Assembly (NCBI RefSeq): GCF_003945765.1
Contig: NZ_CP027712.1
Coordinates: 1,302,001-1,366,000 of the forward strand
DNA length: 64,000 nt
DNA from: Pseudomonas chlororaphis subsp. chlororaphis
Lineage (GTDB): Bacteria; Pseudomonadota; Gammaproteobacteria; Pseudomonadales; Pseudomonadaceae
Reading direction: 5' to 3'
The position numbers were made by a program, and so were the translations under genes. Below, in pieces: positions 41,840 through 42,867 of this stretch. Under the pieces are notes generated by a model. That model saw only the letters and a list, made by a program, of their open reading frames with translations. It ran no database searches and was not told where the DNA came from. How positions within the stretch are numbered: position 1 is the first letter of the stretch; each line of letters opens with the position of its first letter.

Positions 41840-42799
41840 ATGGCTCTCAGTAAAGAAGTGCCGGAGTTTGACATCGACGATGAAGTTCTCCTTATGGAGA
41901 CGGATATCGCCACTGATTCGATGTCGAATGAGGGATCTGCTGTACCTTCAGTTCGTGCCAAATCCAAACACTCCGCTTCATTGAAACAACACAAATACAT
42001 TGATTACACGCGAGCGCTCGACGCGACGCAGCTGTATCTCAATGAAATCGGCTTTTCCCCATTGCTCTCTCCGGAAGAAGAAGTTCATTTTGCGCGTCTG
42101 TCGCAAAGTGGCGATCCGGCCGGGCGCAAGCGCATGATTGAAAGCAACCTGCGTCTGGTGGTGAAAATCGCCCGACGTTATGTCAATCGTGGGCTTTCGC
42201 TGCTGGACTTGATCGAAGAGGGCAACCTCGGTCTGATCCGGGCGGTGGAGAAGTTCGATCCGGAGCGCGGTTTCCGCTTCTCGACCTATGCCACCTGGTG
42301 GATCCGTCAAACCATCGAACGGGCAATCATGAACCAGACCCGGACTATCCGGCTGCCGATTCATGTGGTCAAAGAGCTCAACGTCTACCTGCGGGCAGCA
42401 CGGGAGCTGACACAGAAACTCGACCATGAACCCTCCCCTGAAGAAATCGCCAACCTGCTGGAGAAACCGGTAGGTGAGGTCAAGCGCATGCTGGGCTTGA
42501 ACGAGCGGGTTTCTTCAGTCGACGTCTCGCTGGGTCCGGATTCGGATAAAACCCTGCTGGACACCCTCACCGACGATCGTCCTACCGATCCGTGCGAGCT
42601 GCTGCAGGATGACGACCTGTCGCAAAGCATCGATCAGTGGCTTTCCGAATTGACCGACAAGCAGCGTGAAGTGGTGGTTCGCCGCTTCGGCTTGCGCGGC
42701 CACGAGAGCAGCACCCATGGAAGATGTGGGCCTGGAGATCGGGCTTACCCGAGAGCGGGTACGCCAGATCCAGGTCGAAGGTCTCAAGCGTCTGCGTGA
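41840..42799 (+). pseudogene. rpoS: RNA polymerase sigma factor RpoS, frameshifted in region 4.2
   Basis: Residues 1-292 are a normal RpoS: region 1.2-2.4 (YLNEIGFSPLLSPEEEVHFA, FSTYATWWIRQTIERA), region 3 and the start of region 4. After GLRGHESST the frame reads 27 unrelated residues and stops at 42799. The cause is one extra base, A at 42717: ACCCATGGAAG where the family needs ACC CTG GAA (T-L-E). Without it the gene would run to 42845 and give 334 residues, the usual Pseudomonas length, ending SSESLFQ. The lost part is the helix-turn-helix that reads the -35 element, so the product should be inactive or nearly so. A sequencing error is the alternative. Confidence 0.9.
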
Positions 42800-42867
42800 G
42801 ATCCTCGAGAAGAACGGCCTCTCCAGCGAGTCGCTGTTCCAGTAACGGCACGAGCGATCCTGCCGTG

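What the first reader, a model, noticed from the sequence alone, without database searches (positions are those of the whole stretch)
41840..42845. rpoS broken by a one-base insertion in region 4.2
Seen: an A at 42717 turns the expected ACC CTG GAA into ACC CAT GGA, and the protein stops at 42799 with 27 unrelated residues. Downstream of the insertion the correct frame (EDVGLEIGLTRERVRQI to SSESLFQ) is intact to 42845, and deleting the A gives exactly 334 residues. Known: the lost helix-turn-helix contacts the -35 element. Inference: the strain is an rpoS mutant, or the assembly has an error. In this lineage rpoS loss changes stress survival and antibiotic and exoenzyme production, and can be selected in culture.
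Basis: partly seen in the sequence, partly recalled or inferred. Interest (0 to 1): 0.78.

Follow-up and report, generated by a model that had tools for sequence, protein, structure and literature searches.

The report
Recent frameshift in rpoS stress regulator
In this Pseudomonas genome the gene for the stress-response switch RpoS carries one extra base that cuts off its DNA-gripping end; the loss looks real and fairly recent, and it is an ordinary kind of event already known from other Pseudomonas strains.

Summary
rpoS (41840-42799) carries one extra base at 42717, absent from 105 of 105 other loci whose site could be read out and from the two closest species found (97% and 96% rpoS DNA identity), both with a full 334-residue RpoS. 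The protein keeps 292 RpoS residues, adds 27 unrelated ones and ends at 42799, losing the helix-turn-helix of region 4.2. An intact RpoS query has no second match in the genome at E <= 1e-60. The rest of the gene is undamaged: 29 base differences from the nearest species, one amino-acid change. Assembly error is unlikely but open: rpoS is the only convincing frameshift among 372 and 513 conserved reading frames compared with two relatives. Loss of function is likely: P. aeruginosa isolates with a stop at codon 295 lost RpoS-dependent growth (PMC7078477), and P. fluorescens A506 has a one-base insertion in rpoS (PMC3390384). At least 7 of 396 Pseudomonas species genomes have broken rpoS, against 1 of 392 for recA and 2 of 395 for rpoH. 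Best reading: a recent loss-of-function allele, perhaps selected in culture. Known kind; modest interest.

The parts
41840..42799 (+). rpoS as it now reads: 319 aa (292 RpoS residues, 27 out-of-frame residues), TGA stop at 42797-42799
   Evidence: NCBIfam RpoS equivalogs over cut-off
42717..42717 (+). extra base that shifts the frame
   Evidence: absent in 105 of 105 other loci read out and in G372 and G382
42716..42799 (+). 27 out-of-frame codons and the premature stop
42717..42845 (+). rest of rpoS in the other frame; the extra A also makes an ATG, giving a 42-codon ORF that holds the region 4.2 helix-turn-helix
   Evidence: Sigma70_r4 profile positions 24-50, 30.2 bits; 41 residues identical to the commonest C-terminus of relatives
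40819..41733 (+). nlpD-like gene upstream, open reading frame of 304 aa from GTG
   Evidence: the name is from gene order and recall
43147..43276 (+). RsmZ/PrrB small RNA downstream of rpoS
   Evidence: Rfam RF00166, 134.3 bits
43346..43669 (-). ferredoxin-like gene (fdxA, by recall)
43812..46427 (-). mutS-like gene, open over 871 codons
   Evidence: the name is from recall

Best explanation
A real and recent one-base insertion in rpoS. Translation leaves the RpoS frame after residue 292, adds 27 unrelated residues and stops, so the sigma factor loses the helix-turn-helix of region 4.2 that reads the -35 element (known for sigma-70 family factors; inferred here). The product still carries regions 1.2, 2 and 3, but as a sigma factor it is most likely inactive or nearly so, leaving the strain without its general stress and stationary-phase response. 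The allele probably arose in the isolate or in culture, since rpoS loss is repeatedly selected in Pseudomonas. Shown: the lesion, its absence from the nearest species, an otherwise undamaged gene, the loss of region 4, no second RpoS found. Inferred: authenticity without reads, loss of activity, selection in culture.
For: Frame break read directly. Absent from 105 of 105 other loci read out and from both nearest species. The first 292 residues keep 269 of 269 columns that are at least 95% conserved in 103 intact relatives, and the 41 residues after the break are unchanged. Against G372 there are 29 base differences in 333 codons, 26 codons silent and one amino-acid change (residue 25); against G382 43 differences, 39 codons silent and two changes. 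At 9 coding positions the window differs from both; none changes an amino acid; at 6 of the 9 it agrees with G019, so only 2 or 3 look derived in this lineage. Few errors nearby: one frameshift, rpoS, among 372 reading frames against G019; among 513 against G382, rpoS plus seven other flagged rows, of which five are shadow frames, one looks like a start-site effect and one short ORF of 118 aa stays unresolved. recA and rpoH open over their whole length. Pfam region 4 is 55.3 bits in an intact relative and 19.1 here, below the 24.1 cut-off. One match to an intact RpoS in the genome at E <= 1e-60. Precedents: P. aeruginosa isolates with RpoS E295* do not grow on NAG (PMC7078477, passages); A506 has a one-base insertion in rpoS (PMC3390384, passage); P. 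protegens CHA0 gained rpoS Q65X in an evolution experiment (PMC8262913, passages). Survey: at least 7 of 396 genomes with a match have broken rpoS, against 1 of 392 for recA and 2 of 395 for rpoH; Fisher p = 0.02.
Against: No raw reads, no second genome of this strain or species, no phenotype. One base in 6.8 Mb is within reach of a rare error. The site without the extra base is a CCTGG motif, a type at which base modification can disturb long-read calls (recalled), although 3447 CCTGG and 3250 CCAGG occurrences lie in the compared 866 kb with hardly another frameshift in the frames compared. Too few changes are clearly derived in this lineage to date the insertion closely. The P. aeruginosa E295* isolates carry other mutations too. 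The survey excess is modest, post hoc and includes an error-rich assembly (G380).
Confidence: 0.7

Rival explanations
1. Assembly or sequencing error: the strain has an intact rpoS and the extra base is not in the cell.
For: Single base, no reads available; in a PacBio assembly of V. cholerae E7946 one A of a run of six was missing and Sanger sequence showed it to be there (PMC7693049, passage). In the survey G380 has indels in rpoS and a split rpoH, so such errors probably occur in the collection.
Against: One unresolved short ORF aside, no other convincing frameshift among 513 reading frames (500 kb) against G382 or among 372 (424 kb) against G019; with none, the 95% upper bound is about 6e-6 errors per base, 0.006 expected in rpoS. 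Site not in a homopolymer longer than CCC. Completeness 100, contamination 0.17, one contig.
Confidence: 0.17
2. Partial-function allele: the truncated protein still competes for core RNA polymerase or drives promoters that need little -35 contact, as with attenuated rpoS alleles of starving E. coli (recalled).
For: Regions 1.2, 2 and 3 intact; the NCBIfam RpoS models still pass their cut-offs, 448.1 against 394 and 392.4 against 378.7 bits. The P. aeruginosa isolate with R308T kept some growth (0.19; PMC7078477, table row).
Against: P. aeruginosa isolates with E295*, cut three residues later, were as low as an early frameshift in the same assay (0.052 and 0.055 against 0.059 and 0.062; wild type 1.3; PMC7078477; these isolates carry other mutations too).
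Confidence: 0.08
3. Older, species-wide loss of rpoS in this lineage.
For: No second genome of the species was available, and only 2 or 3 base changes in the gene look derived in this lineage, so an age short of the split from G372 is not excluded.
Against: No amino-acid change private to the window and no further damage in either part of the gene; both nearest species intact.
Confidence: 0.05

Closest known systems
Pseudomonas fluorescens A506 rpoS allele (PMC3390384, passage seen; Hagen et al. 2009 seen only as a reference)
   Same: single-base insertion in rpoS, frameshift, truncated RpoS, in a plant-associated fluorescent pseudomonad
   Different: its position was not seen here; another species and event
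Pseudomonas aeruginosa rpoS2, E295* (PMC7078477, passages and table rows seen)
   Same: truncation at nearly the same residue, inside region 4
   Different: nonsense mutation, no frameshifted tail, arose in a laboratory evolution experiment
Pseudomonas protegens CHA0 rpoS Q65X (PMC8262913, passages seen)
   Same: loss of RpoS in a root-associated pseudomonad during experimental evolution
   Different: early stop codon; evolved on plant roots
   Same: lesions in rpoS of Pseudomonas species genomes
   Different: other positions; G034, G188 and G380 at or near the TTTTCCCC run around codons 71-76; G035 in-frame TGA; G380 probably error-rich

Membership tests
RpoS (sigma-38) | passes the NCBIfam RpoS equivalog models | tested here: met
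   NF004207 448.1 bits (cut-off 394), TIGR02394 392.4 (cut-off 378.7)
RpoS (sigma-38) | sigma-70 regions 1.2, 2 and 3 | tested here: met
   45.1, 83.2 and 76.7 bits, all over cut-off
RpoS (sigma-38) | sigma-70 region 4 with its helix-turn-helix | tested here: not met
   19.1 bits, below 24.1, profile positions 1-18 only
RpoS (sigma-38) | gene order nlpD-rpoS-rsmZ-fdxA-mutS | tested here: met
   protein-gene names other than rpoS are recalled
RpoS (sigma-38) | directs transcription of the stress regulon | not testable with these tools
   needs the strain
rpoS loss-of-function alleles | frame-breaking lesion in an otherwise intact rpoS | tested here: met
rpoS loss-of-function alleles | loss of RpoS activity | not testable with these tools
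   inferred from the P. aeruginosa E295* isolates (PMC7078477)

The most novel reading that the evidence does not exclude
The inserted A also creates an ATG in the frame of the lost end, so the locus could make two polypeptides, an N-terminal fragment with regions 1.2 to 4.1 and a separate 42-residue peptide with the region 4.2 helix-turn-helix, acting together as a split sigma factor (split sigma factors are recalled from Bacillus). No clear ribosome-binding site precedes the ATG (only GAGAG, by eye, sequence printed).
Probability: 0.02. Interest if true: 0.6.

Novelty: new member of a known kind. Interest (0 to 1): 0.3.

Why it matters
If the strain is used for biocontrol, stress or secondary-metabolism work, results would be those of an rpoS mutant. 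More widely, the survey suggests that at least 1.5 to 1.8% of Pseudomonas species genomes (6 of 395 to 7 of 396) carry a broken rpoS, more than recA or rpoH in the same genomes, so studies built on such reference strains should check it.

Tried and rejected
Programmed frameshifting: rejected, since no relative read out has the extra base. A second RpoS that would cover the loss: the genome has one match to an intact RpoS at E <= 1e-60; of the 31 Sigma70_r4 matches I looked at two more closely, L002 (FliA-like, by recall) and L003 (RpoH-like, by recall); L001 is RpoD by its 617-codon frame alone; the others were not examined singly. A same-species intact copy in the protein database: one search listed 120 of 7999 hits, the highest at 97% identity, but that database is clustered at 90%, so this says nothing. 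A known hotspot: the passages seen of PMC11838912 concern nlpD mutations and gave nothing on rpoS lesions; in PMC6824842 only a reference entry was seen.

First versions of the frameshift scan were flooded by shadow reading frames; I then kept, for each place, the frame with the highest protein identity. That filter keeps some shadow frames in place of real genes, so the 372 and 513 are reading frames, not curated genes. In one search seven other rows were flagged in this genome. On re-examination the four short frames with an inner stop and one two-frame row lie opposite longer intact frames of 93-97% identity; one two-frame row looks like a start-site effect (99% identity from codon 37 on, which does not reach the first 36 codons); one ORF of 118 aa (about G000:C1:1409170-1409524) stays unresolved. 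The reverse direction gave 4 two-frame rows and 3 rows with an inner stop in G019 and 3 and 8 in G382, not examined.

Survey limits: in-frame stops were visible only for genomes with a listed row, for rpoS 148 and 9 more of 396, so the rpoS count is a lower bound; the recA and rpoH lists were capped in the same way. Left out of the counts: for rpoS G387 (partial), with G154 and G351 without an rpoS match; for recA G096 and G208 (partial) and G160 and G191 (large insertion), with G154, G244, G261, G339, G361, G387 without a match (G361, a 380-contig draft rated 100% complete, had none at 1e-5 either); for rpoH G243 (78% complete, first 46 residues not found), with G239, G294, G387 without a match. 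The rpoH outliers G380 and G411 were first read from E-values and then checked. Changes after the recount: 105 others read out, not 106; the nine positions that differ from both sisters are not all derived in this lineage; so the date is looser, and confidence in the best reading went from 0.77 to 0.70, also to make the options exclusive.

Full report
What is there. The window is G000:C1:1302001-1366000, a one-contig 6.81 Mb genome with 100% completeness and 0.17% contamination, a Pseudomonas by its relatives; no tool names the species. rpoS starts at 41840. At 42717 there is one base more than in relatives, the frame is lost after residue 292, and the ORF ends at 42799 after 27 unrelated residues, 319 aa in all. 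The remaining 41 residues of RpoS lie intact in the other frame, up to the stop that ends at 42845. Pfam finds regions 1.2, 2 and 3 in the ORF over their cut-offs, while region 4 scores 19.1 bits against a cut-off of 24.1; the missing part of region 4 (profile positions 24-50) is in the downstream piece.

Comparison. Of 110 rpoS loci gathered (L009-L118, including the own locus L089 and some genomes twice), the site could be read out in 106; only L089 has the extra base, 105 of 105 others do not. The closest species found, noticed through a recA survey, are G372 (rpoS 97% identical) and G382 (96%); both lack the base and encode 334 residues. Against G372 the gene has 29 base differences in 333 codons, 26 codons silent and one amino-acid change at residue 25; against G382 it has 43, 39 codons silent and two changes at residues 22 and 172. 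No amino acid is private to the window. At 9 coding positions the window differs from both; at 6 of these it agrees with G019, so only 2 or 3 look derived in this lineage. All 269 columns that are at least 95% conserved among 103 intact relatives are kept in the first 292 residues, and the 41 residues after the break equal the commonest C-terminus, 75 of 103. The insertion therefore came after the split from these species and has not been followed by further damage; it is recent, but cannot be dated closely.

Error or mutation. I compared 866 kb of this genome (2 kb of it not fetched) with 800 kb of G019 and of G382. Against G019, 372 reading frames (424 kb) passed the filter: one frameshift, rpoS, and no inner stop. 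Against G382, 513 reading frames (500 kb): rpoS and seven other flagged rows, of which five are shadow frames opposite longer intact frames, one looks like a start-site effect, and one ORF of 118 aa is unresolved. If there is no other error in 500 kb, the 95% upper bound is about 0.006 errors expected in rpoS. The insertion is not in a homopolymer longer than CCC. The site in relatives with the same letters is a CCTGG motif, but 3447 CCTGG and 3250 CCAGG occurrences in the compared stretch went with hardly another frameshift. I hold a real mutation to be four to five times as likely as an error; only reads or resequencing can close this.

How common. A search with an intact RpoS over 398 Pseudomonas species genomes, the own one included, gave 396 with a match. 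Low outliers were examined again: broken rpoS in G000, G034, G188, G190, G360, G380 (frameshifts) and G035 (in-frame TGA), at least 7 of 396. L064 (Pseudomonas sp. FEN) prints the same sequence as G190's L204 over the stretches shown, and L024 (P. tehranensis SWRI196) the same as G035's L199. In-frame stops were visible for 157 of the 396 genomes only. The same survey with recA gave 392 matches and one small lesion (G097, a 650-contig draft; G160 and G191 have recA split by a large insertion, G096 and G208 are partial). With rpoH it gave 395 matches and two frameshifts (G380, G411; G243, 78% complete, left out). G380 is broken in both rpoS, at two places, and rpoH, so it is probably error-rich. 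Fisher test 7/396 against 3/787: p = 0.020; without G380, 6/395 against 2/786: p = 0.020; frameshifts alone, 5/395 against 2/786: p = 0.045. The excess is modest, and the test was chosen after seeing the counts.

Function. P. aeruginosa isolates with RpoS E295*, three residues beyond this break by the tails of the two proteins (taking P. aeruginosa RpoS as 334 residues), did not grow on an RpoS-dependent nutrient, as low as an early frameshift; these evolved isolates carry other mutations as well (PMC7078477, passages and table rows). P. [quoted passage not shown] rpoS Q65X arose in P. protegens CHA0 evolved on roots and raised antifungal activity and biofilm formation (PMC8262913, passages). 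An intact RpoS finds no second match in the genome at E <= 1e-60. Loss of RpoS activity is thus the likely result; selection in culture is a likely origin, but that is inference.

Verdict. A real-looking, recent loss-of-function allele of rpoS, a new case of a known kind. The extra base also makes an ATG for a 42-codon ORF with the lost helix-turn-helix; a split sigma factor is possible in principle and unlikely.

Noticed in passing
G160:C1:3472118-3545099 and G191:C171:17771-48143 (loci L230, L231, L234, L235, L240, L241): recA appears split near codons 63-67 by a large inserted stretch (about 70 kb and 30 kb) that carries its own nearly full-length, divergent recA (76-77% identical to the query) next to one junction.
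   Followed up: no
L201, L202, L203 (G188, G034, G380): Three rpoS frameshifts in different species lie at or near the same TTTTCCCC run around codons 71-76, either a mutational hotspot or a common error site.
   Followed up: partly
G380: Indels in rpoS and a frameshift in rpoH suggest an error-rich assembly.
   Followed up: partly
G000:C1:1409170-1409524 (outside the window, in L161): A 118-aa reading frame of G382 matches in two frames (96% and 83% identity); a possible small frameshift or a divergent end.
   Followed up: partly
window 43269: The T-run at the end of RsmZ has one T fewer than in G372, G382 and G019.
   Followed up: no
window 46552-47313: A phage-repressor-like gene (by eye and recall) lies just beyond mutS, perhaps the edge of a prophage or phage-tail cluster before recA.
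   Followed up: no
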